NCBI GenBank assembly: GCA_019055375.1
Contig: JAHQIW010004397.1
Span: 51,949-115,948 of the forward strand
Source of the DNA: Parelaphostrongylus tenuis
Taxonomy: Eukaryota; Nematoda; Chromadorea; Rhabditida; Metastrongylidae
Reading direction: 5' to 3'
Length of the DNA: 64,000 nt
Below are positions 8,060 through 26,999 of this stretch, piece by piece (the first letter of the stretch is position 1; each line of letters begins with the position of its first letter). The translations under genes and the position numbers were made by a program. A model generated the notes under the pieces. It had not been told where the DNA came from. It did no database searches and worked only from the letters and a program-made list of their open reading frames with translations.

Positions 8060-10540
8060 CTACCGCTAAGAGCGGGTAAATAAAAAATCTTCTGTTCGGC
8101 CATAATCGGTGATTCTTTTCTATGTCAAAGTAAAGAAGGAGTACGTAGAAGCTAAGTGAACATAAAAAAACCAGAAGAAACAATGTTCATAAGAGAAAAG
8201 CGTGTGCAGTATGGATCTCTAGAAAAGCCACTCATCAATTGGTAAAGCAGAAACGTTTGCTTATTTTTGAACTCAGTATTACCTTCAACGTTTATTGCCC
8301 ACTCAAACATGGCAAAATTTTCCAAGTCCCCATAAATCATATGAATCAGCTTACAAAATATATCCAATCCATTCGAGGCTAACCCGGGCTACAAATTATA
8401 TCGTCGAAGACTATCTCGCCCTTGTGATCTAAAGAGATGCACATCGTAGGCTAAATACTATTATGCACGTCGTACAATGAGCAGGATTGACGAAATATGG
8501 GAAGTAGTGGTGAGAACGACAAGAGAGACCATATCAGGATTCAACGCACGTTTGAAAATGGTAGCCAAATTGACGACACTTCTGTCTTCCACGTCGAGTG
8601 ACAACTGTTGTAACTCCATACTATCCATAAGGCTCAGAGTAGCAACAGTCGGTAATCGTTATTGTTTGTGGTGAAATCACCATCAGTGAACGACTGTATC
8701 AAAATGAAGGCACAAACAAAGAATGTGCTGGAGTAGCCACAACCCAAGAAGATGAGTTATCCAATTATAGATATGCCTCACTTTGATTGACAGAATCACC
8801 TGAAACACAGTGAACATCTGAATTTTTTCATAAAAAAAACATCCATAAATCGTAAAGCCTGATTTTGTTGGATGGCTAGACCTATTTTCGTTCTTAGTTA
8901 ATCAACGAGAGCAACGCTTACCTTTTTATACCCCATGGCTGAGGCCACTGGAATATTTTCTAGCACATCACAGTCTTTTGTCAATAACCCGATAAGCAAA
9001 CAAAAAAAAAACTGTGTAAAACAATAGCGCGGAAGAAATTATGGCATGACACATAGAAACCAAGCTTAGTTTTAGAGTTGGGAATTCTCCAACTATCAAA
9101 TGAGTACAAAAAACAGACGAAACACGCTTCTTCTTCGGTGCGGCTTTTTTCTTAAAAAAATAGGAAAGTTCAAGTCATCTATGGGCGTTTTTCCGCTAAG
9201 TAAGCTCTATAGAAGTTCCTGTTGTGTGATTCCCTGATTGAGCTTTATGTTGATAGAAGTGTAAACGTAGTTTAGAATGTGCACCACCACAAAAACAAGC
9301 CTATGTATTCTGTATTATAATATATTCATGCTGTACTAAATTCATATAGTCAAGCAGAAAATGTAGCCGGTCAAACAGTGCCTGCATGTGTAAATTATCT
9401 TTTGTATGGTACAATACACTGAGAAGACTCTCACGGAATCAGAGTGTAGAGAAAAACTTCCTTCTCTAGACTACCGAATGACTGCTAAAAGTTCAGTTGA
9501 AATTTGTTTAGCATAAGACGCCTTTGAAAAATCGTATACTAAAATGGTGCACGCCGTCGCCAAAGAATCAAGCTCAACAATTTGGGAAAACTGGAGACGT
9601 AGTTGGAAGTTTGAAACGAAGGGTAAGTGTAAGTATGGCAACCACAATTCTCTATGATGAATAAACCAGCGTAAGCGTGCATTCAATATGTGCTGAAAAA
9701 CATGTAGAGTGACTGAAGATGGCTCTCTGGTAATTTTTGCAGTTTAGTGCTTTCTCGCATCCTTTACGTGGAACGAACCCAAGATTAAATTAGAATTGAA
9801 ATGGAATTCTTTCTAAAGTGTTTCGACATTAGCATTTGCTGCCAAACTCGCAAGGCACCCGACATCTTATTCGCGGTCGTATGCGCCCTTCAAGTTCTTC
9901 TAAAATCATGGATGCTGTCTTCCTTATATAGTCTACGAGTACGAGCTTCTTAATGAGTAAGCTGTACCAATGTCTGCTTCTACAATAATTGACAGTATCC
10001 TTCATTCTTATCACGTGTATAGTTCGCTGGAAGCACAAAAAGCATAGAAAAGTATAGAGCAAATTTCGTAGTATCTTAGTCGATCAATCGAACTCATTTG
10101 TTCGGTTAGAATTTGAACATCTTCGCCATCTTCAGAACCGGTGACTCGAATCAACTGTGCACTATCGTTTGTCCTAGTTGTGATCTTCGTTTTCGCTGAT
10201 ATCTTTCGAATCAAATTTTCTTCAATGGGACATCGCTCCAACAGAATACTCGGAGATGTTCGTATAATCTCATAGTCATTTTTCAATCAAAGTTCTTTCA
10301 AATACACCTTTCATTGAATCAAATAACTTTTCTCAATTCTTGAGTAAGTTGTAAATGACATCGAAGAAGAATTTTGGTAAGTAAAATTGCAAAAATTTTC
10401 TGAAATCTAGCAAAATTTTATTCATATTTGCTAATTTGTAGTTTCAATTTGGTAATTTGAAGTGGTATTTTGACAGCGAAGTGTCAGGAAAGCAAAGCGG
10501 GTAAAGTGAAATTTCTAATACCTTCTATATAAGCTAATGC
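8060..10540. other. Gene-free stretch
   Basis: No supportable gene. Two adjoining minus-strand open frames (10286-10011 and 10062-9829) are long for this AT-rich background but show no recognised domain. Low-scoring pieces resembling the ~150-bp dispersed unit occur near 9080-9180 and 9455-9540. Confidence 0.4.
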
Positions 10541-10558
10541 AAAGCATTCTGATCACTT

Positions 10559-10980
10559 TTGCAACACGAGGTCGAACGTTATTATGCAGCACAATCACCT
10601 TGTCGTATCTTACGGTCCATTCCGATCGTCTTATATGCAATTTATGGTTTGCTTTGGTTACTTGTTGATGATAAAGTACTACGTTATCCGTTTCACCAAA
10701 TTCTAAGAGCTCGTAGTAGAGAACGCCTATCTGATCCTACCAAATGCACATCTAATCTTCCTTCCATAAGCATTCCGCTTTGCAGTCGATTTTGCTGGTT
10801 GTGCAGGGTCGCTCCATAATCGTTTGCGTTTTGGATTGTCAATATGTAAATCGATCTCTTGTCTCCGTTCACCATGCAATGCAAAAAGTCTTCCTTTCCA
10901 TCGACGGTGGGCTTTTTAAAATTGAGCACGAAAAGTAAAGCTCCTTGCAAATGGCGTTTTTCGGGCTCGAAAGTAGTCAT
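10559..10980 (-). pseudogene. Mariner transposase remnant, middle part
   Basis: Read on the minus strand, this segment follows the order of the mariner catalytic core. A 'DFLHCMVNGDK' block corresponds to the usual FLHRIVTGDEKW region around the first catalytic Asp. It is followed by a degraded linker, a 'LLEFGETDNVVLYHQQ' block and then 'YDKVIVLHNNVRPR', which corresponds to the HDNARPH block with the second catalytic Asp. Here that Asp is Asn (LHNN). The frame shifts near 10693. The sequence loses similarity before the third catalytic Asp and no terminal inverted repeat was found, so this is a dead fragment of what is normally a ~340-residue protein. Confidence 0.7.
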
Positions 10981-10989
10981 TTTTCAAAG

Positions 10990-12185
10990 TCTTATAGAAG
11001 CCATAGAAAACGTAAATTGCATGACAATTTTAACGCACTTTCAAGCAAAAAAAACCTTAAATATCTTTAGTTTTACTATTGTTACAGTAAGAAACAACTA
11101 AAATGCGGAATTATGTCTGTGCACCTAGAGGGTGTTCTTTAAAAATAGCCAAAATGTAACAAAACACAACTAAACCTGTACTTGTTATTATCATTGGCCT
11201 TGAAGTCAATTCTGACAAAGTCTTCGGATTTATTACTTCTCACAACATCCGTAGCAATGCGTTATGTTGTCTCACGTCTGTTAGACCTACATACCTACCT
11301 CCAGATTTAGAAGGCACAACTTCTAGAGAAAATTAAGGAAACAAAGAAAGCGTTAATTCAAATTTTCATGGCTAAATCATTGCTCAGTGATACAAATGTA
11401 TTTCTTTTGGCCGACGTTTTAGTTCACTAATGGTCAACAACTTTAAATCAAAATTTATTTCATCATTAAAACAACTGATAGATACAAGAGTCTTCACACA
11501 AAGACCTACTGATACTTCTAATAGCTCTGTCGGTTTTTATCGACCAACATTCTTGAAAATGCATACATAAACGCCGTATAGAGAAGCTTCCGCAAAAAAC
11601 TATGTCAGAAATTCAGAAAATCGTAGTGTCACTAACTACTGGCAAACACTTCCTGCATTTAGAAAGTTGAAAACTCAACGGGGTGACCTTACAGAGAATC
11701 GTATTCTAGTTCTAAATCGGTGTTTCCCACTAGCTATGAAGAAATTCGTGCAGCGTTGCTAATCTTGGACTAATACTCTTTGAGAATTTGTAAAAATATA
11801 AGAAGTCAACCATCGTGTTGCTACCAGCTTTTGAGAATCTCCAATTTGTGGTCCATCTACAGTCAGTTCAAAGCAGAGCTCGTCCTTATGGTTCAGAAAG
11901 AGCACTCCTACTGTTTCAAAAAAGGACTGCTCGATGCTCTTGAAATTCAACCACAACCGATTAGATATGATGGAAGAAGAAAAAAGGTGAAGTGCATTAT
12001 TATGTCGAAAAGTGACTAGGGCTAATAATTATCGCTCAGAAACATAACAAATTTATGTTTGGATGTTCGTTGGTGCAGCATAAACGAAGGATGGTTAGCA
12101 GAAAGGACGGACAAAACTAAAAACTGCAGTTAGAGAAGGACTGCAAAACTAAAAAGGCTTTTTTTTCCTTTTTCAACTATTCAAC
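10990..12185. other. Gene-free stretch
   Basis: Unique AT-rich DNA. Two overlapping opposite frames at 11759-12019 are mirror shadows of each other without domain signal. I see nothing to annotate. Confidence 0.4.
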
Positions 12186-12189
12186 AATA

Positions 12190-13190
12190 TCATGAGCCTG
12201 AAAGGTAGCTCAAGCTAATGTCCTCTGCGCGTGTACATAACAGGATTCCCTAGCAGGTGAAACACTTAAAACATGAGAGATTACAAGAAATTTGATAGCT
12301 CATTTCCTGACTATTACACCGTCAGAGGGGCGCATGTGGCTCAGTGGCTAGAGGTGCTCTGCGTCGCACACAAGGTCGATGGTTTGACCTAGAGCTCATG
12401 CTCGCCAAATCAGCCATCAGTCTGGAGTCGTTAAATTGCTACTAAAACTTGTCGAAAGGTAGAGCAGATTGATTTGATACAGTGGTAGTTCATCGTGAGT
12501 CATTGTGCAGATCACGTAAGCATTTTATCACCACAGACGAAGTTGAAAGTTGAAGACGAATGCTTGGCTCCTCCCTCACGGATTGGTCAACGTCGAGAGC
12601 TTTGTCCATTCATTCTGTCAGCTCTTTAGAGTGGGTGAATTCTCTTCTTTCTTGGCAGCCCATGGAATCTTTTGGAATGGAAGATAAGGTTATGAAAAAT
12701 GTAACAACAAAAACTCCACAATTGGGCAAAAGTTAAGGCAACTTTACAGCAACAAACTAAATGAACTAATAGCGAAAATGCAGGTATAACTGAAGAAGAA
12801 TATAAGCTAAGCGAAATGAGACATGGGAAGCTGGTTGACTCCTCCATGTTAGAAATCTGTGCTGCTTTTGGAGGGAGACCTTATCCTTCAATCCTAGAAG
12901 CCTCACCCGCGCTCACAGTTGTCATACCAAACCAACAAATTGCATAATCATCTAAGAAGGGACGAATATTTTGCTTGTTCGAAAGCCATCAGACGGTTGT
13001 AATTATGTGAGACGGAAATGACTTCAAATGACTGTGAAAATTAATGAGGCATGGTAATCAGCACCTGTTCTACTTGATGAGCTGACAACATGCTCTTCAA
13101 TGGCCGTCGACGTTTCGAACGTTCTTTTTTCAACACTTAGAAAAGTCAAGGCATTCATTCATTTTGGCCAAACATCTTCATAACAGGTCA
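12190..13190 (+). repeat. Old copy of dispersed repeat R, interrupted by a SINE
   Basis: The order of recognisable blocks matches 34375-35085: an 'aaggtagctcaagctaatg' start, then 'gactcctcc', 'tgctttttggaggg', 'cgcgctcac', 'gctcttcaatg' and 'tcaaggcattcattc' near the end. It is clearly diverged from that copy. A SINE sits inside it, at a point where the 34-kb paralogue is uninterrupted. Confidence 0.65.
12329..12616 (+). mobile_element. tRNA-derived SINE (copy 1, old and diverged)
   Basis: The head contains 'GCGCATGTGGCTCAGTGG' (A-box-like), and the body ends with 'gtcgagagctttgtccatt', a decayed form of the family tail. The B box is mutated (GGTTTGACC). The repeat around it continues on both sides, and the 34-kb paralogue lacks the insertion, so this is a genuine insertion. 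A short 'gtcag' at each side may be part of the target duplication. Confidence 0.75.
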
Positions 13191-13217
13191 GGTGAAACTT
13201 AATGTAAATGTCGAATC

Positions 13218-13420
13218 GCATAGTGAACAATTCTACAAAGGAGGTCAGCAGCCAAGTGTTCAGTGTTAATCAGCATGGAGCTGGCCAGCCCTACCAACAA
13301 TCTGTGGAAATAAATCATCGTAGGGTCAAAGGATCGCCAGCTTATCTATCCTCATTATTGCTAGAAAGTCCACTCCTACGTTCGCAAAGCAGACGAAATC
13401 CACGAGCAAAGGACTAATGC
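13218..13420 (+). pseudogene. Outermost piece of the arm, possibly BEL/Pao gag-pol junction
   Basis: An open frame of about 65 codons runs here. Its counterpart in the other arm (23593-23394, minus strand) directly abuts the zinc-knuckle part of a broken BEL/Pao gag. I see no motif inside this piece itself, so its membership in the gag rests on position. It carries the only substitutions between the arms. Confidence 0.3.
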
Positions 13421-14180
13421 GAAAATACAAAGAAAACGCTAAAAGTACTTTTACCCGCACAACAAAACGTAGATATACGTCGTATCAATTGAATTATAAA
13501 TTCGATATGTAGTCAGCTTCTGATGAAATTCAATATTGTTTTGATTGTCTGTCAGTTAATGGCGAGACCACCAGCACGGATCCTTACACTAATGGAGTGC
13601 TGCGTTTGGCTCGCACAAAAAAGTTGATATGAGGTGAGCCCATGAGCGATAATGGCACACCTATCCCAGCAAACTTTTTGGGACTTTGACATAAATATAA
13701 ATCTTTTCCAGAGCTGCCGTGCCACCGTCTCACGTTGGGCGGACGTGTTTGTAAGTAAAGTCATTCTTCTGCATATGCAGATAGCAGTGAGTTTGAACTG
13801 ACGGAATGGGCCGCACGTACGGCACCAGCTTGAAGCATTTCAACACCATGGAAGACAGTTGCGTGAGAGAGGAACGATTGGCAACTATATTGAAGCATGC
13901 ACTGCTACAGAAGATGAGCCATCCAAGTAGCCACGTAAGTAGCCTGTTTGAGTCCAATAGGCGCTTACTTGGATTGGAATTTAGTTCGAAGTTTATAGAT
14001 AAAGTGCTCTCTTGAACGGATTCATAACAATCTTGCACGTGTTCACATGAAAAATTCATGCTTCATTTATTCCCGAGTACATACTGGGCTGCGAGAGAGT
14101 GACAGTTTTTCCGTAACATATTTGGAGCCATAAATTACTAGTTACTTGTCGTTGTCCTCTAAATACTAGGCCTTCTTATA

Positions 14181-15016
14181 AGTTTTGGTACTAGAAGAAC
14201 AAACACCAAATTTATTAGTCAGAAGTAGTCACAATTGCTTACCAAATTTTTCCAAATATGTGCCGTCAACCTGAATACGCTTCCTTTGGCACCCAATCTT
14301 GTCCACACTTGCCTTATCATGGTCGCTTAACGAAGCCTTTATCACAGTGTGCCATATTACGAGTACGAATTGAGACGCGATGCACAGATCGCCTTTCATC
14401 AGCAGTGAAAGTGCTCCAACATTTGTGTCCAAGCGAACAGCGTTTTGTTTCTTTGTTGGGCTTCGCGTCGGCATCACTAATTTGAGGAACCAGCTGCGCT
14501 TCGGAAGTCCACGCAAAATTTACTGAGAACCCGTCATTGAAAGAACTGAAGGAAAACTCACTAGGATTTGTCATCTAGCCGGAGAGATAATTATTGCCAT
14601 GAGATACTGTGAGAAGCTGAGTCACTGCTGTAAGTGGGCCCTGTCACATCGAGGTCGTCACAATCACATCCTGTTTCAAGACAACGGAAGACAGTATGTC
14701 GTCAAATTGACAAAGACGAAGATGACCGAACTAAGCTGAAAGTGGGTGGATTATCCGCCGTATAGTCCTGAGATATTTCCCTCTGACTCATCGGGTCGTT
14801 CGAGCACTTTCGGAGCACGAAAAAGTTTTGAAAGATCAATCATTTGAGGCAGAGACTGGCAACTTTTATTGAACTCATTTACGACGAGTTTTATGAGAGT
14901 GACATTAGCCAGTTGTCTGATTGATGGCGGAAATGTGTTGAAGCTGATGGCGCATACTTGATTAGCATTTTTGAACTAGTCAATAAATTTGGTGTTTTTG
15001 CTCTAGTGCCGAAACT
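14181..15016 (+). mobile_element. Internally rearranged mariner element (left arm)
   Basis: The ends are inverted copies of about 35 bp. The left end runs from 'agttttggtactag' to 'caccaaatttatt' (14181-14216) and the right end is its imperfect complement (14981-15016). The right half encodes the C-terminal half of a mariner transposase. The 836-bp length is well under the ~1.3 kb of a full mariner, so about a third is missing or replaced. The left half reads best on the opposite strand, where a short 'VDGTYLE' near the left end looks like a second mariner C-terminus. This suggests two 3' ends joined head to head. Confidence 0.75.
14584..14970 (+). pseudogene. Mariner transposase C-terminal half with D34D spacing
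   Basis: The frame opens with 'GEIIIAMRYCEKL', matching the mariner region before the second catalytic Asp. 'LFQDN' then carries that Asp (codon at 14680) and 'YSPEIFPSD' the third (codon at 14785). Exactly 34 codons separate them, which is the mariner D34D signature. An in-frame TGA at 14737 lies between them. A frameshift follows, after which the C-terminus resumes ('LATFIELIYDEFYESDI', 'WRKCVEADGAYL'). The N-terminal DNA-binding half is absent. It is inactive, and its mirror copy in the right arm carries the same stop. Confidence 0.8.
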
Positions 15017-16144
15017 AACGAGAAGATTAAATATATTCTCAGAAAGAAGATTCCGAGCTTTGATATTGTTTTCATAACTTGCCGCGATCTTGTTATTAGG
15101 TTTGTGTTATCTAATCAACGAGTTTCAGTCGGAACAATACTCGAAATACCAGAGGAAAGGGAGGGGGAGGGGCTTCAGCAAAAGATTGATAACGAGATTT
15201 TGTCACGAAAAGGATAGACACTAATAATGAGGTGTGGTGAAATCGTATCGTAACGTGTCTCGTTATTGAGATAATATAGTACTTAAAAGGCCGAATGACT
15301 TGATATTACATGACAACACGTCACGTATGCCGTACTACTTGCTTATATGACTGGTATTACGCTGGTTGTGGACAAATTTTTTTTTTATATAATTCGAACA
15401 TTCCAAGTCATCACTTCCTTGAGAACAAAGCATAAACCGTTCTCTTCCAGGCCCTTTAGTTGTCATTCAGTAGCTTGAATCTCTGCGATTCAAATCGCTT
15501 TTTGTATTGCGAAGAATCATCCATAATATGCTCTTGGAGTGAGATTAAATTTGATGATTTACACAGATTTCCCACAATGTTGCTGTGAAAAAACCTTGCT
15601 TTGCCGTTTTATGACTTTATATTTTTATTTTTCTTTCATTAGAAAGAATGCTATGAAATATATGCTTAGGTCTTGAAATGCTAAACGTCGTCCTCTCTTT
15701 GCTTTTTCAGCAGTATATGGAAATCTTTTCACAAACTAAACTTATTTTGTGGTAGTCCGAATAATATAGGCGAACAACTATTAGAAAATGTGAAAAGACC
15801 ATCTGGAATCTTAGCCGAGAAAGAATTGCTCGGCAAATGAGAAGCGTGGCCTTTTACGTTGCTACAGCGCTTTTACGGAGCTTTCTAAAAAAACAGCTGT
15901 GGTGCTGCAATCTTCAAGAATTGAATCTGGGCTTTTGATTGACTACTCAAATCCAAAAGGAGGAGCAAAAAAAGAATTCGTCACTAAACGATTGAGAAAT
16001 GAATGGACATAAAATAATCGTACAGTTTTACCTTCCTAGAATCGTGATGGTGTTATTAGAGCTTCACCACATTGCACCTATTGAATACGACAATGCCAAA
16101 ATGACAGAGCTAATTTATTAATTCATAGTCTATCTTCTTTACAG

Positions 16145-16321
16145 GCTTTCTCTGCGCTGAAATGTCACATAGTCCACGATGCCGTGGGCTGCCCTCTGTT
16201 TATGGACCACCACAGATGTGAAGGCACCCAGTTAAACGATCAGAAGTCTTCCCAGCACTCGATGACGCAGGCGGCAAGCTATAGGCAATATTTGTTGATT
16301 TATACGTATAATATCAAGACA
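16145..16321 (+). CDS. Candidate exon of unknown function (left arm)
   Basis: A good nematode-style 3' splice site (cttctttacag, ending at 16144) precedes an open frame of about 59 codons. The frame is rich in Cys and His early on (the run 'GCPLFMDHHRCEG' is visible) and continues into the inserted SINE. I recognise no domain, and no upstream exon or donor can be tied to it. It may be a relic exon cut by the SINE, or chance. An identical copy lies on the minus strand at 20490-20666. Confidence 0.22.
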
Positions 16322-16637
16322 AGAGCGCATGTGGCGCAGTTGTCAGAGGTGCTCTGCGTCGCACACGAGGTCACTGGTTCGATCTCGCGCTCATGGCTCA
16401 CCAAGCCATCCATCCCTCCGCGGTCGGTAAATTGGTACCAGACAGGTCTCAGACTTGTCTGGGAGGATAAGCAGCACTGACTCGGTTGAGCGGGAGGCCA
16501 CCGCGAGTCACTGTAAAGACCAGATATGCATTCAATCACCTCAAACGAAACTAAAAATTGAGTTTGTATGCATGGCGCTTCCCTCAGGAATTGATCAACG
16601 CCGAGAGCTTTATCCTTTATCCTTTAATATCAAGACA
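16309..16637 (+). mobile_element. tRNA-derived SINE with 13-bp target-site duplications (copy 2)
   Basis: The body is 16322-16624. It starts with a tRNA-like head with A box 'TGGCGCAGTTG' and B box 'GGTTCGATCTC', is followed by a ~200-bp tRNA-unrelated body, and ends in a short tandem tail of TTTATCC units. The 13-bp 'taatatcaagaca' is repeated exactly at 16309-16321 and 16625-16637, which is direct evidence of LINE-style retroposition. The arm of the inverted repeat ends inside the tail at 16617, so the 3' duplication exists only here and not in the mirror copy. Confidence 0.9.
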
Positions 16638-16759
16638 CTTTTACACAGTACAGCGAGCTGTAACGTATTATCGCCATTCAATTGCATATTTGCCACCAGC
16701 ATGAAGGGTAATGCTCTCTATGTACATGATAAAGTTTAACTTTTGCTGAGAATTTCGTT

Positions 16760-17064
16760 TTATTCATGAACATCGCATATCAGTGATCGAACAAATCTCC
16801 TAGCAATTTCGGAGAACGCCATGCCAAGAATTCCGCGTAGCGCTGGATGACCGATTGCCGGAAAATTCGGTAAGGTCAGCCCCGCGCTGGGTAATACTAA
16901 TACTCTCCAATCACTTTCCTCCTTCTCTGCCTCACGAACAACTGCCTATATTCTTCCACTCGGCTGTTCGTTGTAAACCCTCAAAATAGAAATGGCTGAA
17001 GCCTTCCTCGAGATGGACACGACAGTTGTGAGAACTCTGTAATTCGAACTTGGGTAATCAAACC
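16760..17064 (-). pseudogene. Retrocopy candidate of a trans-spliced mRNA, carrying an SL1-like 5' end
   Basis: On the minus strand the segment begins at 17064 with a 22-nt sequence that matches nematode spliced leader 1 at 19 of 22 positions (it starts GGTTTGATTACCCAAG; SL1 has A at position 6). The sequence after it is not that of an SL RNA gene. Instead a single reading frame runs for about 100 codons to a TAA at 16760-16762, overlapping an AATAAA. It is interrupted only by one TAG (16946-16948). The last 60 codons look coding-like, with a Pro/Gly-rich 'LPNFPAIGHPALRGIL' stretch, but I do not recognise the protein. Because SL1 is added in trans to RNA, its presence in DNA implies reverse transcription of a mature mRNA. 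No poly(A) tract or target duplication is visible. Confidence 0.5.
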
Positions 17065-17189
17065 TTTATAGCAGCAGTTACAGCACAAATAAGCAGTGGC
17101 ATAAATCAGCAATAAGTTCGAAACAGTAATGTGCGTACAGCCAAAATTATATACAAAACCATGATTGATCAGTGAGATCGACTCTTTTT

Positions 17190-17632
17190 AGAACCTCCCA
17201 GTAAACATTCAATATAACTCCAAAAAAAGATTGTCTAAAGCCTGTCTAAAAAATTTCAAAAAAAGAATGTTTTAGCCTAAAAGAGGTTGGTACGCCAGGG
17301 CCATACACCGGTGTTTCGGAGGTTTCGGCCTACTCGTCAGTGACCCCCGCCCCGAATTATGCCATGCATTGTAGCAAGGAGGGAGGCGTATGTGGTGATG
17401 GCATAATGTACAATGACACTGGTCCATCACTACTATTCAATCCATGGATTTCGGCGGGTAGACCAAAATTAATCCATAAAATCGACTGCTTTTAAAATCT
17501 TGTGATAAACATTGAAAATAATTCCAAAAAAGAATGATTTTAGCCTAAACGAGGTTGGTACGTCAGGGCCATTTTTCGGAATTATTTTAAATGTTTATCA
17601 CGGGGCTTTGAAAACAGTCGGTCTTATGAATG
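17190..17632. repeat. Direct and inverted small repeats (hairpin family)
   Basis: A ~90-bp block ending 'gaggttggtacg.cagggccat' occurs at about 17200-17303 and again at 17490-17573. The second occurrence is one side of a hairpin: 17478-17528 pairs with 17576-17632 over about 48 bp ('gataaacatt' against 'aatgtttatc'). The unit looks like a small non-autonomous repeat present twice. Confidence 0.6.
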
Positions 17633-17685
17633 TCTAAAGAATGCTATGAAAAACCATGATTATTCAGCAAGATCTCTGACATTGA

Positions 17686-18232
17686 CTCAATACACCAGTT
17701 TGTACGGAAAGTGCAACTACGAACACAAATGTCAAATAAGTTCAGGCCGACATTTCGCTGCACGACACAAATACGGCATTCAAATTAACATGAATATTCA
17801 GCTCATGTCTTAGGGATGAGAAAGGTCACGGGCATTCAACTATCAAGTGGCAGATATAGGCTTATCAATACTACATCTAGCAAGTTATAGACCTGACATG
17901 GATTATAGAGTAGCTAAGCTTGATGACGTGCAAGAACTCAACCTAAATCGGAGAACGTCAAATAGGACAATTTAGGATAAATAGGAAATTCATACGGAAG
18001 ATAAGAGAAGCGTGTTGGTAGTGTGAGCACTCGATGGTCGACTCTCGCCGTCAACGGTCCCTACCGAGGCGACCGGTGCAGAGTCGATCGTTCGATTGGT
18101 TGGTCACGCCAAACGTAGTCTACCCTCGACACATCCATCTGCACATCTCGGATCGTTCATTACTAGCTTGTCGTCTTTCTTTGAGTACGTATTCAGTTGC
18201 TTGGTTCTTGTACTGGTCAGCGTAGTGTTGAA
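17686..18232 (-). repeat. BEL/Pao-type LTR remnant (putative 3' LTR)
   Basis: About 550 bp match 25739-26290 in the same orientation, including the block 'gtgttggtagtgtgagcac' (near 18011 and 26069). The other copy stands directly upstream of a minus-strand BEL/Pao gag. This one is therefore placed as the 3' LTR of the same element, or as a solo or second copy. The outermost TGTTGAA end is lost here. Confidence 0.6.
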
Positions 18233-18335
18233 CTTGTTAATGCCTATCGAGTTATGCCTATCGAGAGTTAGTTTGTGTCAATTAAAAAAATACGTCTTCT
18301 GTTTTTTACCGACGACAAAGCATGTCGCTTTAAAG

Positions 18336-18958
18336 AATTAACATGATGAACAACCTACCTCCAATACTAAGCAGGAGGAAACGAGCGGCTTGGAGAACAT
18401 TCAAGAGCATCGAAGACGTAGTGAAGTGGACAAAGAACATCCGACCCCGTTCCCACCTTTTCGACTCGACGATTATCCCTACCCTGAAGTACGCAGCAGA
18501 AATCTGATCGCTACGTAAGGAAGAGAAAGTTCATTTGGCGTTATTGAATACGCAGTCGAGAGGTCAATGTTAGAAGTATTTCTTATCTCGTATTAAGAGA
18601 AACCCGAAGTTCCGACCTACATAACGATCGAAAATCAAGGACGCCCTTCTTCACGCCAAGATAATGAAAATAAGGTGGATGGGACACGTGATGCGCTTCA
18701 ACGACTACCGATATACGAGAGTCGTTACCGACTGGATTCCTCGGGACATCAATCGCTCTACAGAAAGGCCACCGACCTGTTGATTCGATTTCTTCACGAA
18801 AGCTGTGGAAGAAAGATATGATGCCCAGCGAATCCCGATAGCGAGGAAGAATCACTGGGGTACTTTTGCACGCGATAGGGGAAAAATGAAAGTGTTGCTG
18901 GTACCCGCTCGAGTCACTCGGCGATCGACGGGACGACAGGTGATACAGGTGACGTATG
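18336..18958 (+). pseudogene. RTE-type LINE fragment, 3' end of the polymerase ORF
   Basis: The translation aligns with the second half of the copy at 42946-43970. The shared motifs are 'TKNIR', 'HLFDSTIIP', 'KIRWMGHVMRFND', 'VVTDWIPRDI' and 'EERYDAQRIP', in the same order. The catalytic palm of the reverse transcriptase is missing because the fragment starts after it. Several stops and frameshifts are visible (a TGA after 'KYAAEI', and a break near 18540-18600). It is a 5'-truncated, dead copy, as is usual for LINEs. Confidence 0.85.
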
Positions 18959-19257
18959 TGAGAAAATATTGAGATCTTATGGATAGTGGAGAAATTCTAA
19001 GCGTGGAGGGATAATCGTGCTAAAGTGAAAATCTCGAAAGATTGATATTATGCAAAGTATTAATCAGAAATATGTCTCTAAAAAAGTATTTTTTGTTTTT
19101 TTCCCCTTCTCACCCACTTATAAGAAACGTGTTTTTATTTCTCTTCAACGTTTCAGTAATTCTTTGACAGCTTAAATTTAGAGAATTTGATAACTCACGC
19201 TTTCACCAACTTTCGGTAGCACCAATTTGAACGATTTCAATGATGAAGTTAAAAAGA

Positions 19258-19531
19258 TCTCTCGGAGGTGATCAATTCCTTAGGAATGCGCTATGCATTC
19301 GTTTTCAATTTTAAACTTGGATGGGGTAATTGGACGCATATTTGGCCCTTGCAATGACTCACAATGGTCTCTCGCTGTGCCAGGTGAGTATTGCTTGCTC
19401 TCCCAGACAAATTTGGTGCCAGGTTGGTAGCAGTGAAAAGATGGATCGCTTGATGAGCCATGAGCTCGAGATCGAACGTTCGTCCATGTGTGCGACGCAG
19501 AGAACTTTCAGCTTTTGCGCCACAAGTGCGC
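19258..19531 (-). mobile_element. tRNA-derived SINE (old copy, spacer)
   Basis: Reverse-strand copy of the family: the tail end ('ctctcggaggtgatcaattcc') is at 19259-19280 and the tRNA-like head ends with 'gcgccacaagtgcgc' near 19516-19531. It is more diverged than the arm copies and has lost the TTTATCC tail. Confidence 0.75.
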
Positions 19532-19695
19532 TAATTTCAATGATATGCTTGGTTTTTCAAAAAAAGAACGTTACATTTCGTTGTCACGGCTTGAAGAATA
19601 TTGAGTTTTGCACTCAACGTCGTGTTGATCGCGCGGCGCAATTTACACGTGGTGCGCGATGTGCACCGACTGTCAAACGCAATATTCTTATGGCT

Positions 19696-20055
19696 CTAAC
19701 AACACACTAAAAAGTTTTTCTTCAAAACCAAGCGTATAATTAAAATTTTTAACATTTGCGTTACCAAATCGATATGAAAAAAAATAAATAAAAGCTGTGT
19801 CCAGGGATAAGTACTCATATGAGTAACATAGTGACTGTGATGCTTATCGCGGCGCACGTAGAGTCGAGCTCTACCCCAGCACTCTCCGTCAGTCAACAAA
19901 AAGGCTTTATGGAACGCCACAGCTAGGCTGTTCTCGAGATCGCAGGGAAGGATTCTCGGCCAGTCTCCTACGTCATTTAGGAAGACTGCGAAAAGCGAAT
20001 TCAATGCTAGAAACACTGGAATCCGCACCATGAAAAAGTTGCGACGACGGGTCAT
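19696..20055 (-). CDS. Open frame of 119 codons with hydrophobic N-terminus, unknown
   Basis: The frame starts MTRRRNFFMVRIPVFLALNS. A basic stretch is followed by a hydrophobic stretch, as in a secretory signal peptide. A moderately charged part with two Cys comes next, and then a second hydrophobic tail encoded by AT-rich DNA. Composition changes at about codon 75, so only the first part may be an exon. I recognise no family, see no paired splice sites, and cannot exclude a chance frame in this repeat-rich spacer. Confidence 0.22.
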   Translation of the reverse strand: MTRRRNFFMVRIPVFLALNSLFAVFLNDVGDWPRILPCDLENSLAVAFHKAFLLTDGECWGRARLYVRRDKHHSHYVTHMSTYPWTQLLFIFFHIDLVTQMLKILIIRLVLKKNFLVCC

Positions 20056-20193
20056 GCAAACAAGTAAACGAATAAATTGATGTGCGACAAATTTTTATTC
20101 TTGCTGCTACAGTTCGCTAAGAACCTTTTTTCAAAGATAAACATGCCATTGGAAATTTCGAGGTTTCAGCTAATGACAGGGTAAAAAGAATAG

Positions 20194-20489
20194 AAGGATA
20201 AAGCTCTCGGCGTTGATCAATTCCTGAGGGAAGCGCCATGCATACAAACTCAATTTTTAGTTTCGTTTGAGGTGATTGAATGCATATCTGGTCTTTACAG
20301 TGACTCGCGGTGGCCTCCCGCTCAACCGAGTCAGTGCTGCTTATCCTCCCAGACAAGTCTGAGACCTGTCTGGTACCAATTTACCGACCGCGGAGGGATG
20401 GATGGCTTGGTGAGCCATGAGCGCGAGATCGAACCAGTGACCTCGTGTGCGACGCAGAGCACCTCTGACAACTGCGCCACATGCGCTCT
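20194..20489 (-). mobile_element. tRNA-derived SINE (right-arm copy, tail truncated)
   Basis: Identical to 16322-16617 on the opposite strand. The 5' target-site sequence is kept at 20490-20502. The tail stops after 'tatcctt' at the arm boundary, and no matching 3' duplication follows. It is a copy produced by the inverted duplication, not an independent insertion. Confidence 0.92.
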
Positions 20490-20666
20490 TGTCTTGATAT
20501 TATACGTATAAATCAACAAATATTGCCTATAGCTTGCCGCCTGCGTCATCGAGTGCTGGGAAGACTTCTGATCGTTTAACTGGGTGCCTTCACATCTGTG
20601 GTGGTCCATAAACAGAGGGCAGCCCACGGCATCGTGGACTATGTGACATTTCAGCGCAGAGAAAGC
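20490..20666 (-). CDS. Mirror copy of the candidate exon at 16145
   Basis: Sequence-identical to 16145-16321, with the same upstream 'cttctttacag' acceptor-like site on the minus strand. The same doubts apply: no recognised domain, no partner exon. Confidence 0.22.
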
Positions 20667-21794
20667 CTGTAAAGAAGATAGACTATGAATTAATAAATTA
20701 GCTCTGTCATTTTGGCATTGTCGTATTCAATAGGTGCAATGTGGTGAAGCTCTAATAACACCATCACGATTCTAGGAAGGTAAAACTGTACGATTATTTT
20801 ATGTCCATTCATTTCTCAATCGTTTAGTGACGAATTCTTTTTTTGCTCCTCCTTTTGGATTTGAGTAGTCAATCAAAAGCCCAGATTCAATTCTTGAAGA
20901 TTGCAGCACCACAGCTGTTTTTTTAGAAAGCTCCGTAAAAGCGCTGTAGCAACGTAAAAGGCCACGCTTCTCATTTGCCGAGCAATTCTTTCTCGGCTAA
21001 GATTCCAGATGGTCTTTTCACATTTTCTAATAGTTGTTCGCCTATATTATTCGGACTACCACAAAATAAGTTTAGTTTGTGAAAAGATTTCCATATACTG
21101 CTGAAAAAGCAAAGAGAGGACGACGTTTAGCATTTCAAGACCTAAGCATATATTTCATAGCATTCTTTCTAATGAAAGAAAAATAAAAATATAAAGTCAT
21201 AAAACGGCAAAGCAAGGTTTTTTCACAGCAACATTGTGGGAAATCTGTGTAAATCATCAAATTTAATCTCACTCCAAGAGCATATTATGGATGATTCTTC
21301 GCAATACAAAAAGCGATTTGAATCGCAGAGATTCAAGCTACTGAATGACAACTAAAGGGCCTGGAAGAGAACGGTTTATGCTTTGTTCTCAAGGAAGTGA
21401 TGACTTGGAATGTTCGAATTATATAAAAAAAAAATTTGTCCACAACCAGCGTAATACCAGTCATATAAGCAAGTAGTACGGCATACGTGACGTGTTGTCA
21501 TGTAATATCAAGTCATTCGGCCTTTTAAGTACTATATTATCTCAATAACGAGACACGTTACGATACGATTTCACCACACCTCATTATTAGTGTCTATCCT
21601 TTTCGTGACAAAATCTCGTTATCAATCTTTTGCTGAAGCCCCTCCCCCTCCCTTTCCTCTGGTATTTCGAGTATTGTTCCGACTGAAACTCGTTGATTAG
21701 ATAACACAAACCTAATAACAAGATCGCGGCAAGTTATGAAAACAATATCAAAGCTCGGAATCTTCTTTCTGAGAATATATTTAATCTTCTCGTT

Positions 21795-22630
21795 AGTTTC
21801 GGCACTAGAGCAAAAACACCAAATTTATTGACTAGTTCAAAAATGCTAATCAAGTATGCGCCATCAGCTTCAACACATTTCCGCCATCAATCAGACAACT
21901 GGCTAATGTCACTCTCATAAAACTCGTCGTAAATGAGTTCAATAAAAGTTGCCAGTCTCTGCCTCAAATGATTGATCTTTCAAAACTTTTTCGTGCTCCG
22001 AAAGTGCTCGAACGACCCGATGAGTCAGAGGGAAATATCTCAGGACTATACGGCGGATAATCCACCCACTTTCAGCTTAGTTCGGTCATCTTCGTCTTTG
22101 TCAATTTGACGACATACTGTCTTCCGTTGTCTTGAAACAGGATGTGATTGTGACGACCTCGATGTGACAGGGCCCACTTACAGCAGTGACTCAGCTTCTC
22201 ACAGTATCTCATGGCAATAATTATCTCTCCGGCTAGATGACAAATCCTAGTGAGTTTTCCTTCAGTTCTTTCAATGACGGGTTCTCAGTAAATTTTGCGT
22301 GGACTTCCGAAGCGCAGCTGGTTCCTCAAATTAGTGATGCCGACGCGAAGCCCAACAAAGAAACAAAACGCTGTTCGCTTGGACACAAATGTTGGAGCAC
22401 TTTCACTGCTGATGAAAGGCGATCTGTGCATCGCGTCTCAATTCGTACTCGTAATATGGCACACTGTGATAAAGGCTTCGTTAAGCGACCATGATAAGGC
22501 AAGTGTGGACAAGATTGGGTGCCAAAGGAAGCGTATTCAGGTTGACGGCACATATTTGGAAAAATTTGGTAAGCAATTGTGACTACTTCTGACTAATAAA
22601 TTTGGTGTTTGTTCTTCTAGTACCAAAACT
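21795..22630 (-). mobile_element. Internally rearranged mariner element (right arm)
   Basis: Exact mirror of 14181-15016, including both terminal inverted repeats. The transposase half with the D34D pair lies on the minus strand at 22227-21841, with the same internal TGA. Two independent mariner insertions could not share all of these lesions, so the element was present before the inverted duplication. Confidence 0.8.
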
Positions 22631-23593
22631 TATAAGAAGGCCTAGTATTTAGAGGACAACGACAAGTAACTAGTAATTTATGGCTCCAAATATGTTACGG
22701 AAAAACTGTCACTCTCTCGCAGCCCAGTATGTACTCGGGAATAAATGAAGCATGAATTTTTCATGTGAACACGTGCAAGATTGTTATGAATCCGTTCAAG
22801 AGAGCACTTTATCTATAAACTTCGAACTAAATTCCAATCCAAGTAAGCGCCTATTGGACTCAAACAGGCTACTTACGTGGCTACTTGGATGGCTCATCTT
22901 CTGTAGCAGTGCATGCTTCAATATAGTTGCCAATCGTTCCTCTCTCACGCAACTGTCTTCCATGGTGTTGAAATGCTTCAAGCTGGTGCCGTACGTGCGG
23001 CCCATTCCGTCAGTTCAAACTCACTGCTATCTGCATATGCAGAAGAATGACTTTACTTACAAACACGTCCGCCCAACGTGAGACGGTGGCACGGCAGCTC
23101 TGGAAAAGATTTATATTTATGTCAAAGTCCCAAAAAGTTTGCTGGGATAGGTGTGCCATTATCGCTCATGGGCTCACCTCATATCAACTTTTTTGTGCGA
23201 GCCAAACGCAGCACTCCATTAGTGTAAGGATCCGTGCTGGTGGTCTCGCCATTAACTGACAGACAATCAAAACAATATTGAATTTCATCAGAAGCTGACT
23301 ACATATCGAATTTATAATTCAATTGATACGACGTATATCTACGTTTTGTTGTGCGGGTAAAAGTACTTTTAGCGTTTTCTTTGTATTTTCGCATTAGTCC
23401 TTTGCTCGTGGATTTCGTCTGCTTTGCGAACGTAGGAGTGGACTTTCTAGCAATAATAAGGATAGATAAGCTGGCGATCCTTTGACCCTACGATGATTTA
23501 TTTCCACAGATTGTTGGTAGGGCTGGCCAGCTCCATGCTGATTAACACTGAACACCTGGTTGCTGACCTCCTTTGTAGAATTGTTCACTATGC

Positions 23594-24794
23594 AGATCTG
23601 TCGCATAGGCGGCAAAACCCTCCTTTGCAGTCTATCGTTTTGTGCTGTCTTGATCCACAGATTTAGCTGAGATTATGAGTTCTCAGAACTGTAGTCTTTC
23701 TTCTTGAGACCGTAATTTCTGGCAGTCAGTTGGTGAGTGTTTTGTCGTATCACAATAGAAATATGGCTGGTCTTCGCTTGTGAACGGTTTCGGATGGATT
23801 GTTTGAACCAGGTGATGCTTTTGGTTCCGCAGATTTTTCGCTTCTCGTCTCTGGCCGACGTCTCGATCCATTTTTGCTTCGATTTGGAGTTCTATAGATA
23901 TGTACTGCATTATCCTCTTCAAGAGCTCGTTCATAATAAGCAATGCATCGCCTCGTCGTTAATTGGTTGGGTCCAGTGTGTGACTTTCAACACTTTCTGA
24001 GAAAATCCTGAGGATTTGCTGATGCAAGTACATGCTGTCGACCGGCTCTCCTTTTTGACGTAGCTGGTCCACCATTGTAAAGATTCACACAGTAATTCTT
24101 GGTCTTCTAATCGTTCACTCCTTGTTTGAGCCTTGTGCAGCAGGTGCAGTAGTTGACCCGATTAAATCTCATTGTTGTTGTACTTACCCCTCAGTTGAGC
24201 CATAACCAACTGATATTGCCTTCACAAAATTTTCATATTGCTCCACGAACGTTGTTGCTTTAATTTCCAGAGCGCTTAGTAAACAGGTCATTTGAAATAG
24301 TCCTCCATATAGCGTGAATGAAGTGTTTGATCAAACGCGGTCCAAAATGCGTCCTATTTCCAAATTTCTTCGCTGAATTTTGGTATAGGGACGGGTGGTA
24401 GAATTGTGGTTGGACTTTCACCGTTTGAATTTTTGCCGGCTTGTTATTGTATCGCTTTATACATGCTTTCAAAAGATTCAGGTACTCTGACGTATCTTCT
24501 TTTATTGAGAATGCTTCTTCCGCATAAGTATCGAGCTCCTCATCCTCTCTTGACGACTTTTGCTCTGAATTGTCGAAGGCTTCGATGTACTCATTTAGTG
24601 ATAGTTTGACTGCATTGATCTTCCTTTCAACAGACTGAACTGCATCTTTGCAACGTTGACCCTGACAATTTCTTGCTTCATCATTGGCTTGTTGAGAACA
24701 TTTAAAATGTCGTTTCTAAAGTTTTCTGCCGTCTTTTCCAACCTGTTAGACGACCGAGCAAGTTTCTTTCGGTGACGCGTAGTTCACCGGACAT
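23594..24794 (-). pseudogene. BEL/Pao retrotransposon gag, broken by frameshifts and stops
   Basis: On the minus strand a start (ATG at 24794-24792, MSGELRVTERN) leads into a gag-like frame with charged, helix-type composition. The central part (about 24430-24170) has the BEL/Pao gag pattern of the DUF1759 family: 'PIPKFSEEIWK', a stop, 'DAFWTAFDQTLHSRYMEDYF', then a stop and a frameshift. Near 23760-23690 is a Cys-His box ('FYCDTTKHSPTDC'), and at about 23655-23597 a second ('CGSRQHKTIDC' to 'FCRLC'). The order of conserved region followed by zinc knuckles fits BEL/Pao. The frame changes several times, and protease, reverse transcriptase and integrase are not seen downstream; there the inverted-repeat arm takes over. 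Confidence 0.75.
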
Positions 24795-24814
24795 AGTTTG
24801 TTTAGCGTTGATGC

Positions 24815-24990
24815 TACAGAAAGGGAACAGTTGGATTGGTGGGATAGAATAGAATAGAAGGGAGTATGACGAGGCCACTAGAGTAGAAGGCAATAGAAAA
24901 GTATAGAATGGAATGGATGAAATAGATTAGAGTAGAGTCGAATTTGGTAGGATAGAACAGAACAGAATACAGGGATTTTGATAGTGCTGA
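24815..24990. repeat. Degenerate AGAAT/TAGAG pentamer tract
   Basis: Purine-rich 5-bp units such as 'agaat', 'agaag' and 'tagag' follow each other with errors. The tract lies in the leader between the minisatellite and the gag start of the BEL/Pao element. Confidence 0.75.
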
Positions 24991-25028
24991 CGTACGTGGG
25001 CAGAGGATTTGTGGACTTTCGCGCGCTT

Positions 25029-25610
25029 GAGAAACGAATGGAGTGCCGATGGGACCGTTAAAGAGGTCTTGCTGTGTTTGGGAAAAGATTACACTGCCAA
25101 CAGGGCCGCTGGAAAGATTTTCGGTGCTTGGGAAAAGAACAGACTGCCGGTGGGGCCGTCAAAGAGATTTTTCCGTGCTTGGGAAACGAATGGAGTGTTG
25201 ATGGGGACGTTGAGGAGATTTTCCTTGATTTGGGAAAACGAGTGGAGCGCCGGTGGGGCCATTGAGGAAATTTTCCCGGGTTTGCGGAAACGAGTGGAGT
25301 GCCAATGGGGCCGTTGAGGAGGTTTTCCTTGAATTGGGGAAACGACTAGAGTGCCGATGGAGACGTTGAAGAGTTTTTTTCCGTGCTTGGGAAACGAATG
25401 GAATGCAGATGGGGCACCTGGGGAGATTTTCCCTGGTTTGGGGAAACGATTTTCCCTGGTTTGGGGAAACGACTGGAGTGCCGATGGGGCCGTGGTAAAG
25501 GTTTTTCCATGTTTGGCAAACGAATAGAGTGCCGATGAAGACGTTGAAGAGGTTTTCCCTGGTTTGGGAAACGAATGGAGTGCCGATAGTGCCATTGAAT
25601 AAGGTAGTTC
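25029..25610. repeat. Minisatellite of 51-52-bp units in the BEL/Pao leader
   Basis: About eleven units follow each other. Each begins near 'gccgatggggccgttga', passes through 'ggttttcc', and closes with 'gggaaacgaatggagt'. Unit lengths are 51 or 52 bp, with one 23-bp internal duplication at about 25427-25470. Because most units are 51 bp, a minus-strand frame stays open for 168 codons and gives a 'SFPKPGK' repeat. This is probably not a protein. Confidence 0.9.
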
Positions 25611-25719
25611 AAGGCGCAGATGAATGACGTGCGTACCTGTTTAGTGAGTCGCTGCCCTTTTGATGTTCCACGCGGTCATGTAATTACCTAGTCTGGTCAA
25701 TCCTCCAGCCTGAGCTATT

Positions 25720-26301
25720 TGTTGAACTGGGTTCAGTCTCGACTCAATACACCAGCTTGTACAATCCATGCAACTGAAAATACAAATGTCAAGCAAGTTT
25801 AGGCCTGACGTTTCGCTGCACTACACAGATACGGCTTCCAAAGTAACATGATCAGGCAGTTCACGTCTTAGGGATGAGAACGGTCACGGACTCAACTATC
25901 AGATATCAGATATAGGCTTATCTATACTGCATCTAGCAAATTGTGACCTGATATGGATTAGAGAGTGTCTAAGCTTGATGACGTATTGTGAAGGCGAGAA
26001 CTTGACTCAAATGATAGGATGAGAAAGAGGACAACTTGGGCTGAATAGAAAATTAAGACGGAAGATAAGAGAAGCGTGTTGGTAGTGTGAGCACTCGATG
26101 GTCGACTCTCGCCGTCGACGGTCCCTACCGAGGCGACCGGTGCCGAGTAGATTTCTCGATTGTTTGGTCACGCCAAACGTAATCATTCCTCGACATATCC
26201 ACATGTACATCTCGGAAAGTTCATTACTAGCCATTGGCCTTTCTTTGAGTACGTATGCAATTGCTTGGTTCATGTACTAGTCGACGCATAAGTATTCAAC
26301 G
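25720..26301 (-). repeat. BEL/Pao LTR (5' LTR of the minus-strand element)
   Basis: The outer ends form a short inverted pair, 'tgttgaac' at 25720 and 'attcaacg' ending at 26301, as LTRs do. The ~580-bp body recurs at 17686-18232 in the same direction. The gag reading frame begins about 0.9 kb downstream on the minus strand. I could not fix the primer-binding site or a 5-bp target duplication. Confidence 0.65.
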
Positions 26302-26525
26302 TGTTATTTTCTGTCGAGTTATTGAGGTCAAGAAGTCGTGTGATGAATCAAATAGAGACTATGCGATAGGATATTCTCTTTTTCAGTAACTTACGTTCGA
26401 TTCAGCGGTGGCCCCCGCTTTATCAGAGCCACACGCTCTACTAGTCGATGCTACTTTATAACAGAGGTGGGGAGATGTGTTTCTGGAGATAATACGTCAT
26501 CGTGAATATCACCATTTTAATATCT

Positions 26526-26562
26526 GGCATGTATATGCGTATATATATATATACATACCATT
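26526..26562. repeat. Short AT/GTATATGC microsatellite
   Basis: A purine-pyrimidine alternating run (gtatatgcgtatatatatatata) is seen. Confidence 0.8.
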
Positions 26563-26704
26563 TCTTAAGATTGCTTTGAACTAATGAGGAAGTGATTCGA
26601 CTTCCCCACACTTTCAGTAGAGCTGTTAGTAGCCGAAAAATTAAAATGACGGTTGCTTCGCCATCGGCTTCTTTTGTTCTTAAGATGGCTAAAGAACAAT
26701 GACA

Positions 26705-26977
26705 CAAAACTTTTATTTGGCTAAAATTTCAACATCTGCTTCTTCTACAAACCCAATAAGTCAAGTCGATTGTCCACAGCTGTTCGCCCTCATTACCCTT
26801 AGCCTTAGTCCACGTTGGCGCTCGAATTTATTGTTGCCGCTTCTTTATTTGCTTTTCAACAGGTTTCAGCTTTACCACTGATTTTTTCCACATTAGACTG
26901 CTCGATCTGATTCGGGCTTTTTCGTGTGTTCCATCGCTATCATCTCCTAGAATCATCACCGAAGCTCTCGAACTCAT
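26705..26977 (-). pseudogene. Small coding-like remnant with poly(A) signal, unknown protein
   Basis: On the minus strand an ATG at 26977 opens a 49-codon frame (MSSRASVMILGDDSDGTHEK at its start; Ser/Arg/Lys-rich later). It ends at a TAA (26830-26828). The same frame then continues for 32 codons to a TGA (26731-26729), followed by an AATAAA (26717-26712). The amino-acid composition is protein-like, unlike the Ile/Tyr-rich frames around it. A possible donor ('gtaaag') lies inside. It could be the last exon of a gene with a readthrough error, or a processed remnant. I do not recognise it. Confidence 0.3.
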
Positions 26978-26999
26978 AGCACCCGTTAGTGAAAATCGA

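What the first reader, a model, noticed from the sequence alone, without database searches (positions are those of the whole stretch)
13218..23593. 3400-bp inverted repeat with essentially identical arms around a 3.6-kb spacer
Arms at 13218-16617 and 20194-23593 obey a constant coordinate sum of 36811 with no indel. The only substitutions I found (13251, 13256, 13352) lie in the outermost 135 bp, and even a homopolymer of ten Ts is conserved. Clustering of differences at the outer edge is what arm-to-arm gene conversion would leave, as in palindromes maintained by conversion. Transcripts across the unit could form long dsRNA. An assembly error joining two haplotypes or a chimeric read is the main alternative.
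Basis: seen in the sequence. Interest (0 to 1): 0.8.

Follow-up and report, generated by a model that had tools for sequence, protein, structure and literature searches.

The report
Copied patch making an inverted repeat
A worm chromosome carries a 3.4-kb mirror-image repeat because one stretch of DNA was recently copied backwards into a decayed transposon-like relic nearby, with the copying apparently jumping between two scattered short repeats; it looks like a DNA-repair scar, not a working element.

Summary
The inverted repeat is real in the sequence: arms 13218-16617 / 20194-23593, no indel, three substitutions (13251, 13255, 13353), all in the outer 136 bp. The window lies in an assembly of 481.5 Mb, 5105 contigs, with nematode affinity. 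Genome comparison explains the anatomy. Two paralogous loci (about 85%) align straight through the left arm's outer edge and lack the SINE at its inner end, so the left arm is the original. The right arm is a reversed copy inside a decayed BEL/Pao-like gag: four gag relatives match the window only to 23593-23603. The outer part of the 'spacer' (18272-20193) is a 99.4% copy of DNA 66 kb upstream, which ends in its own, different SINE. The two copied pieces meet in 38 bp shared by the two SINEs: a SINE-to-SINE template switch. The three arm differences are derived in the copy, next to its new junction. Best reading: a patch made by template-switching repair, not a functional palindrome. Arm-to-arm conversion is possible but not required. 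A new example of a known kind; no reads were available to exclude misassembly.

The parts
13218..16617 (+). Left arm A+S: original copy (A 13218-16321 plus SINE S up to its first tail unit)
   Evidence: Paralogous loci C762 and C3312 align through 13217/13218 without a break. In one search full-length A matches are the two arms and these two loci (85%, 84%); only 40 of 8567 candidates were scored, so weaker copies may exist
16322..16624 (+). SINE S (tRNA-derived by eye) with tail (TATCCTT)2, flanked by the perfect 13-bp target-site duplication TAATATCAAGACA at 16309-16321 and 16625-16637
   Evidence: both paralogues have the empty site with one target copy
16638..18258 (.). Inner part of the spacer, native: flank, then LTR-like repeat copy R1a (17038-17179 and 17645-18258), interrupted by an insertion at about 17180-17644
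   Evidence: 16625-17179 and 17650-18255 collinear with C762/C3312; R1 family copies
18259..18271 (.). Junction J3 between R1a and copied piece Y; short local duplication GCCTATCGAG beside it
18272..20193 (+). Copied piece Y: 99.4% (12 mismatches of 1922, no gaps) to C2884:2344-4265, 66 kb upstream on the same contig
20194..20231 (-). 38 bp identical in SINE S, in right-arm SINE S' and in the donor's SINE_b: the template-switch tract J2
   Evidence: first S'/SINE_b mismatch at 20232; SINE_b/Y edge in the donor identical to this junction
20194..23593 (-). Right arm S'A': reversed copy of 13218-16617; has the 5' target duplication (20490-20502) but not the 3' one; carries the three derived bases (23458, 23556, 23560)
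23593..23594 (.). Junction J1: right arm joined inside a retroelement gag
   Evidence: homology of four fetched gag relatives to window 22600-25740 ends at 23593, 23593, 23593 and 23603, while relatives continue alike among themselves in the two pairs compared
23594..24758 (-). Decayed BEL/Pao-like gag relic (stops, frameshifts), cut off at J1
   Evidence: 16 of 48 matches are gag copies (67-81%) within q3-1165; weak DUF1759 match, E 0.15, below cut-off; zinc-knuckle-like motifs read by eye, BEL/Pao pattern recalled
25629..26379 (.). LTR-like repeat copy R1b beside the gag relic
   Evidence: 11 of 48 matches run from q2148-2152 to q2769-2786 (window 25741-26379); L030 extends it to 25629

Best explanation
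The inverted repeat is a repair scar. A decayed BEL/Pao-like relic on the minus strand was cut in its gag (23593/23594), and a 5.3-kb patch (18272-23593) now lies behind the cut. The patch is copied from two places: A+S, a few kb away, copied in reverse, and Y, 66 kb away on the contig. The copies meet in the 38 bp shared by SINE S and the donor's SINE_b, so a replicating end switched template there. Shown here: which arm is the original; that the right inner edge equals the donor's SINE_b/Y edge; that the right outer edge is a break in gag; that the three arm differences are derived on the copy beside that break. Inferred: break-induced or microhomology-mediated replicative repair as the process, error-prone synthesis near J1, that the relic lost its middle in the same event, and whether Y and A' came in one event or two.
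For: Paralogues C762 and C3312 align through 13217/13218 and lack SINE S. Compared with window 10000-27000, neither has a match (80 bp or more) to 18259-20186 or 23594-25740, and each has one copy of A in the 18 kb fetched. SINE S has both target duplications on the left, only the 5' one on the right. The right inner junction is identical to the SINE_b/Y edge at C2884:4265/4266; the right arm's SINE equals S and differs from SINE_b at 16 of 295 positions, the first at 20232. Four of four fetched gag relatives match the window to 23593-23603 and no further, but match each other beyond in the two pairs compared. Of three arm differences, C762 has the left-arm base at 3 of 3 and C3312 at 2 of 2, with a gap at the third. 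Close published parallel: Alu-Alu chimeric junctions with 47, 34 and 14 bp identity in human inverted rearrangements attributed to BIR/MMBIR (PMC4352052, passages).
Against: Y and the arms differ in divergence (12/1922 against 0/3264 in the interior, p 6.6e-6), which does not fit one event without later homogenisation. J1 shows no more junction homology than chance (p 0.34). A false assembly join at a high-copy SINE cannot be excluded without reads. R1a and R1b are 17% diverged (96 of 569) and differ in their left ends, so they may not be the two LTRs of one element. The outgroups are two loci of the same genome, 94% alike, not another species.
Confidence: 0.72

Rival explanations
1. Homogenised arms (compatible with the patch origin; it concerns only why the interior is identical): the arms are as old as Y (about 0.6%), and arm-to-arm gene conversion has kept their interior identical but does not reach the outer 136 bp.
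For: 0 differences in 3264 bp where about 20 are expected at Y's divergence. In the same window the older inverted pair 36758-37444/42264-42941 is more diverged in its outer 240 bp (32/236 against 26/435, p 0.0014), and the 4.8-kb duplication is more diverged within 600 bp of its ends (78/956 against 170/3293, p 0.0007). Conversion between inverted repeats in Caenorhabditis is proposed in PMC1803023 (abstract and Discussion read).
Against: The older inverted pair is 8.6% diverged overall (58/671), so conversion did not keep it alike; its outer part could instead be a separate RTE copy, as two RTE copies in the window differ by 17% (106/616). All three edge differences are on one arm. A younger second copying step explains the same numbers.
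Confidence: 0.3
2. Merged consensus (also only about the interior): the arms' identity is partly an assembly or polishing effect; reads from both arms were merged, and only differences near the unique outer flank were kept.
For: All three differences lie within 136 bp of unique flank, about a short-read length; no reads could be examined.
Against: No differences remain near the inner edges, which also have unique flank; the three bases are ordinary transitions with the paralogue base on the left.
Confidence: 0.2
3. Inversion of the spacer with staggered breaks, leaving a duplicated arm at both ends, as at Drosophila inversion breakpoints.
For: Gives the same arm-spacer-arm shape; PMC5080602 (passages) describes a one-sided case, inversion O8. 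It was my working model until.
Against: Paralogues have left flank, A and spacer start in the present order and orientation; the outer spacer has a separate donor 66 kb away.
Confidence: 0.03
4. False assembly join through the high-copy SINE or between haplotypes; the inverted repeat does not exist in the animal.
For: One junction lies in a high-copy SINE, a classical misjoin point (36 of 43 matches are SINE copies at 91-95%); no reads.
Against: The outer junction J1 is in a gag, and A is not found in the four gag relatives fetched; C762 matches the window collinearly on both sides of the patch; a SINE misjoin alone would continue from A' into the left flank's complement, not into gag.
Confidence: 0.12

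Closest known systems
BIR/MMBIR (FoSTeS) complex rearrangements with Alu-Alu chimeric junctions, e.g. DUP-TRP/INV-DUP at human PLP1 (PMC4352052, passages)
   Same: Inverted copy with a switch between copies of a short retroelement in a few dozen identical bases; other junctions with little or no homology; raised point mutation stated for such junctions
   Different: Here a kb-scale patch inside a retroelement relic of a nematode-like genome; mechanism inferred from sequence only
Templated insertions at breaks (PMC8421209 and PMC5120786, passages)
   Same: Filler copied from nearby and more distant DNA, one piece reversed, at the site of a deletion
   Different: The yeast insertions mentioned in PMC8421209 are short and copied from within 100 bp, and 80% of its analysed tumour junctions used 2-12 bp; here pieces of 3.4 and 1.9 kb and a 38-bp switch tract
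Long near-perfect inverted repeats of Caenorhabditis (PMC1803023, abstract and Discussion)
   Same: Nematode, arms of kb length and over 99% identity (2207-bp arms, 99.7%, 126-bp spacer at F44E5.4)
   Different: Those involve paralogous gene pairs conserved between species; here no gene was recognised, the spacer is 3.6 kb and one arm is a recent insertion
Fold-back inverted duplications with a disomic spacer (PMC3907307, abstract and outline)
   Same: Arm, unique spacer, reversed arm, with short inverted sequences at the spacer edge
   Different: Here part of the spacer comes from another place and the reversed copy is interstitial

Membership tests
Templated insertion by replicative template switching (BIR/MMBIR) | Inserted DNA is a copy with donors still in place | tested here: met
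   Left arm with native flanks; Y donor at C2884:2344-4265
Templated insertion by replicative template switching (BIR/MMBIR) | At least one change of template at shared sequence | tested here: met
   38 bp shared by S and SINE_b at 20194-20231
Templated insertion by replicative template switching (BIR/MMBIR) | Break or deletion at the receiving site | tested here: met
   gag relic cut at 23593/23594, its continuation not there; R1a ends at 18258
Templated insertion by replicative template switching (BIR/MMBIR) | Single event | tested here: inconclusive
   Y and arm divergences differ
Templated insertion by replicative template switching (BIR/MMBIR) | Microhomology at the remaining junctions | tested here: inconclusive
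   J1 p 0.34; J3 not tested statistically
Palindrome maintained by arm-to-arm gene conversion | Arms more alike than their age allows | tested here: inconclusive
   0/3264 against 12/1922 in Y, but the ages of the two copies may differ
Palindrome maintained by arm-to-arm gene conversion | Old structure shared with relatives | tested here: inconclusive
   Two paralogous loci of the same genome have no second arm in the 18 kb fetched of each; no other species could be compared
Staggered-break inversion | Spacer inverted relative to the outgroup | tested here: not met
   Left flank, A and spacer start have the same order and orientation in C762 and C3312
BEL/Pao LTR element (the receiving relic) | BEL gag (DUF1759) and flanking LTRs | tested here: inconclusive
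   DUF1759 E 0.15, below cut-off; LTR-like repeats with common ends; R1a/R1b left ends differ
tRNA-derived SINE (S, SINE_b) | tRNA-like head, short tail repeats, target-site duplications, high copy number | tested here: met
   13-bp duplication and empty sites for S; 36 listed copies at 91-95%. Of the six window copies tested, S (13 bp) and the 19.3-kb copy (11 bp) have a duplication, the 33.8-kb copy only an AT-rich match, the right-arm, 12.3-kb and 52-kb copies none. The tRNA origin is read by eye; ARAGORN and Rfam did not call it

The most novel reading that the evidence does not exclude
High-copy SINEs in this genome act as landing pads for template switching during repair and repeatedly create long inverted duplications (an older pair exactly flanks a 4.8-kb duplicated segment in the same window), and conversion then keeps the interior of young arms identical while their edges drift.
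Probability: 0.12. Interest if true: 0.55.

Novelty: new member of a known kind. Interest (0 to 1): 0.33.

Why it matters
Donors, receiving site and a within-genome outgroup are all still readable here, so a kb-scale template-switch repair product in an animal genome can be reconstructed, including which arm is the copy and where its new bases fell. It shows how a near-perfect inverted repeat can arise with no selected function, a useful caution for reading palindromes, and it gives a test of conversion against youth (12/1922 against 0/3264). It is not a new system.

Tried and rejected
Inversion with staggered breaks: my first model, rested on the SINE target duplications and on reading a gag zinc knuckle through 23593/23594. 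The paralogues showed that the left outer edge is native, and gag relatives end at J1, so that gag-continuity reading was wrong.

Recombination between two gag copies to explain the edge mismatches: dropped, because the left flank aligns with the paralogues and not with gag.

Orientation of the spacer from an in-window paralogue (36158-36272): dropped, because that stretch is a dispersed repeat. The inner-junction homology (p 0.036) was tested under the old model and is superseded by the SINE_b edge.

Protein routes to identify the gag: one search was run in the wrong frame, one search found nothing among 113 candidates, Pfam gave only DUF1759 at E 0.15. Pfam on 94 open frames of the window at E 0.01 gave three families, one frame each: RVT_1, DUF7802, DUF6602. 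The frame holding DUF7802 was not located in the 30 frames scanned singly. 94 of the 101 frames that passed the filter were given; seven were left out by hand.

Polarising the Y differences: rows from minus-strand loci (L014-L016, L007-L010) were not turned and are not used. From the remaining rows I read, by eye, 5 of 7 sites as derived in the donor copy and 2 in the window copy; the other 5 of the 12 sites were not polarised.

Not done: structure prediction, RNA folding, counts of SINE-SINE inverted structures genome-wide, any comparison with another species' DNA.
Full report
WHAT IS THERE. The inverted repeat is as reported: arms 13218-16617 and 20194-23593, constant sum 36811, no indel, spacer 3576 bp. 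Three positions differ: 13251, 13255, 13353. The other 3264 inner positions are identical, and the ten-T run is conserved.

WHERE IT COMES FROM. The window is C2884:51949-115948 of an assembly of 481.5 Mb in 5105 contigs. The species was not identified.

THE INNER EDGE IS A SINE. Both arms end inwards in the tail of a SINE (S; tRNA-derived by eye). On the left, S (16322-16624) is flanked by a perfect 13-bp target duplication, TAATATCAAGACA. On the right only the 5' copy exists, so the right inner edge is not an original insertion edge of S. The SINE is high-copy: 36 of the 43 matches are SINE copies at 91-95%.

THE LEFT ARM IS THE ORIGINAL. Searching the genome with the arm listed, besides the two arms, two full-length relatives without the SINE: C762:117450-120590 (85%) and C3312:36915-40005 (84%). 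All other matches were the SINE part, apart from one of 46 bp; only 40 of 8567 candidates were scored, so weaker copies of A may exist. C762 is collinear with window 5903-17179, 17650-18255 and then 25772-29720 at about 80-91%, with gaps. C3312 was compared with window 10000-27000 and shows the same order; it is 94% like C762 over 15 kb. Both align without a break through 13217/13218 and show the empty site of S with one copy of its target. In one search neither has a match to 18259-20186 or 23594-25740. So the left flank, A and the inner spacer are ancestral, and the right arm is an addition.

THE RIGHT OUTER EDGE IS A BREAK IN A DECAYED RETROELEMENT. 23594-24758 (minus strand) is a decayed BEL/Pao-like gag (weak DUF1759, E 0.15; 16 of 48 matches are gag copies at 67-81%, 40 of 111 candidates scored). 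Four of these loci were fetched: homology to the window ends at 23593, 23593, 23593 and 23603, although the query ran on into A' to 22600, while in the two pairs compared they remain alike to one another beyond that point. R1b (to 26379) beside it and R1a (to 18258) are copies of an LTR-like repeat; 11 of 48 matches share its ends. R1a and R1b are 17% diverged (96 of 569) and differ at their left ends, so I do not insist that they are the pair of one element.

THE OUTER SPACER IS COPIED TOO. 18272-20193 (Y) matches C2884:2344-4265 on the same contig with 12 mismatches in 1922 bp and no gap. There Y is followed directly by a different SINE copy, SINE_b. The sequence at the Y/SINE edge is the same at both places. 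The right arm's SINE agrees with S throughout and differs from SINE_b at 16 of 295 positions, the first at 20232. The change from one donor to the other therefore lies in the 38 bp 20194-20231 that S and SINE_b share. That C2884:2344-4265 is the donor and the window the copy is inferred from the window's mixed edges; divergence alone does not say so (of 7 sites polarised by eye, 5 are derived in the C2884:2344-4265 copy and 2 in the window).

MECHANISM. A 5.3-kb patch, A' + S' + Y, lies in the retroelement relic. A repair end that copied A and S in reverse from a few kb away switched, in the shared SINE tail, to the SINE_b locus and copied Y (or the same in the other direction). This is what break-induced or microhomology-mediated replication is thought to do. 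Human inverted rearrangements with Alu-Alu chimeras of 47, 34 and 14 bp identity are a close published parallel, and increased point mutation at such junctions is stated there (PMC4352052, passages). The process is inferred; the edges and the polarity of the arms are shown.

THE THREE DIFFERENCES. At 13251 and 13255 both paralogues have the left-arm base; at 13353 C762 has it and C3312 is gapped. All three are thus derived on the right arm, within 136 bp of J1. Error-prone synthesis beside the junction, or an edge that conversion does not reach, would both give this. Under uniform placement the clustering has probability 6.4e-5; at Y's divergence three or more in 136 bp has probability 0.054.

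CONVERSION OR YOUTH. If the arms were as old as Y, about 20 differences are expected in their interior; none is seen (Fisher p 6.6e-6 against Y). Either A' is younger than Y, or conversion or consensus merging has homogenised the arms. In the same window the older inverted pair is more diverged at its outer end and the 4.8-kb duplication within 600 bp of its ends, which fits conversion, but the outer end of the pair could be a separate RTE copy and the pair has drifted to 8.6%. I leave this open; the confidences of these two rivals overlap with the main reading and are not meant to add up to one.

IS IT AN ARTEFACT? One junction is in a high-copy SINE, where assemblers go wrong, and I have no reads. 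Against it: at J1 the four gag relatives do not share A, a SINE misjoin alone would lead from A' into the complement of the left flank, and C762 matches both sides of the patch in order. I put artefact at about 0.12.

PRIOR ART. Papers seen: PMC1803023 (abstract, Discussion), PMC5080602, PMC4352052, PMC5120786, PMC8421209 (passages), PMC3907307 (abstract and outline). Library searches were made; judged by title and start of abstract, none of the papers they listed describes a SINE-to-SINE switch of this kind in a nematode. These searches are far from exhaustive.

Noticed in passing
36758-37444 and 42264-42941: A second, older inverted pair (58 mismatches of 671) whose inner edges coincide with the ends of a 4.8-kb segmental duplication (29707-34622 copied at 37444-42264; 206 of 3749 in the main block); the right arm continues into an RTE reverse-transcriptase frame. 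Its outer 240 bp are more diverged than the rest.
   Followed up: partly
29707-34622 / 37444-42264: Divergence between the two copies is lowest in the middle (1 of 200 near 31.7 kb) and on average higher within 600 bp of the ends, though not evenly (13 of 200, then 31 of 195 at the left end); conversion would leave this, but selection in the middle was not tested.
   Followed up: partly
25017-25605: A tandem array of about 51-52-bp units between the gag relic and R1b; a related array lies at C2884:40.9-42.2 kb on the other strand.
   Followed up: no
17180-17644: An insertion of about 465 bp absent from both paralogues, with internal inverted and direct repeats (17472-17631 palindromic) and related copies elsewhere in the genome (17253-17572, 84%); looks like a MITE.
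   Followed up: no
45840-46144: Short-spacer hairpin, 133-nt arms 86% complementary with 39 nt between.
   Followed up: no
6429-6502, 30190-30262, 37925-37997: Three tRNA-Ser(GGA) genes on the minus strand, two of them in the duplicated segment.
   Followed up: no
28635-28993: Degenerate GATAGT/GATAAT hexamer array of about 360 bp.
   Followed up: no
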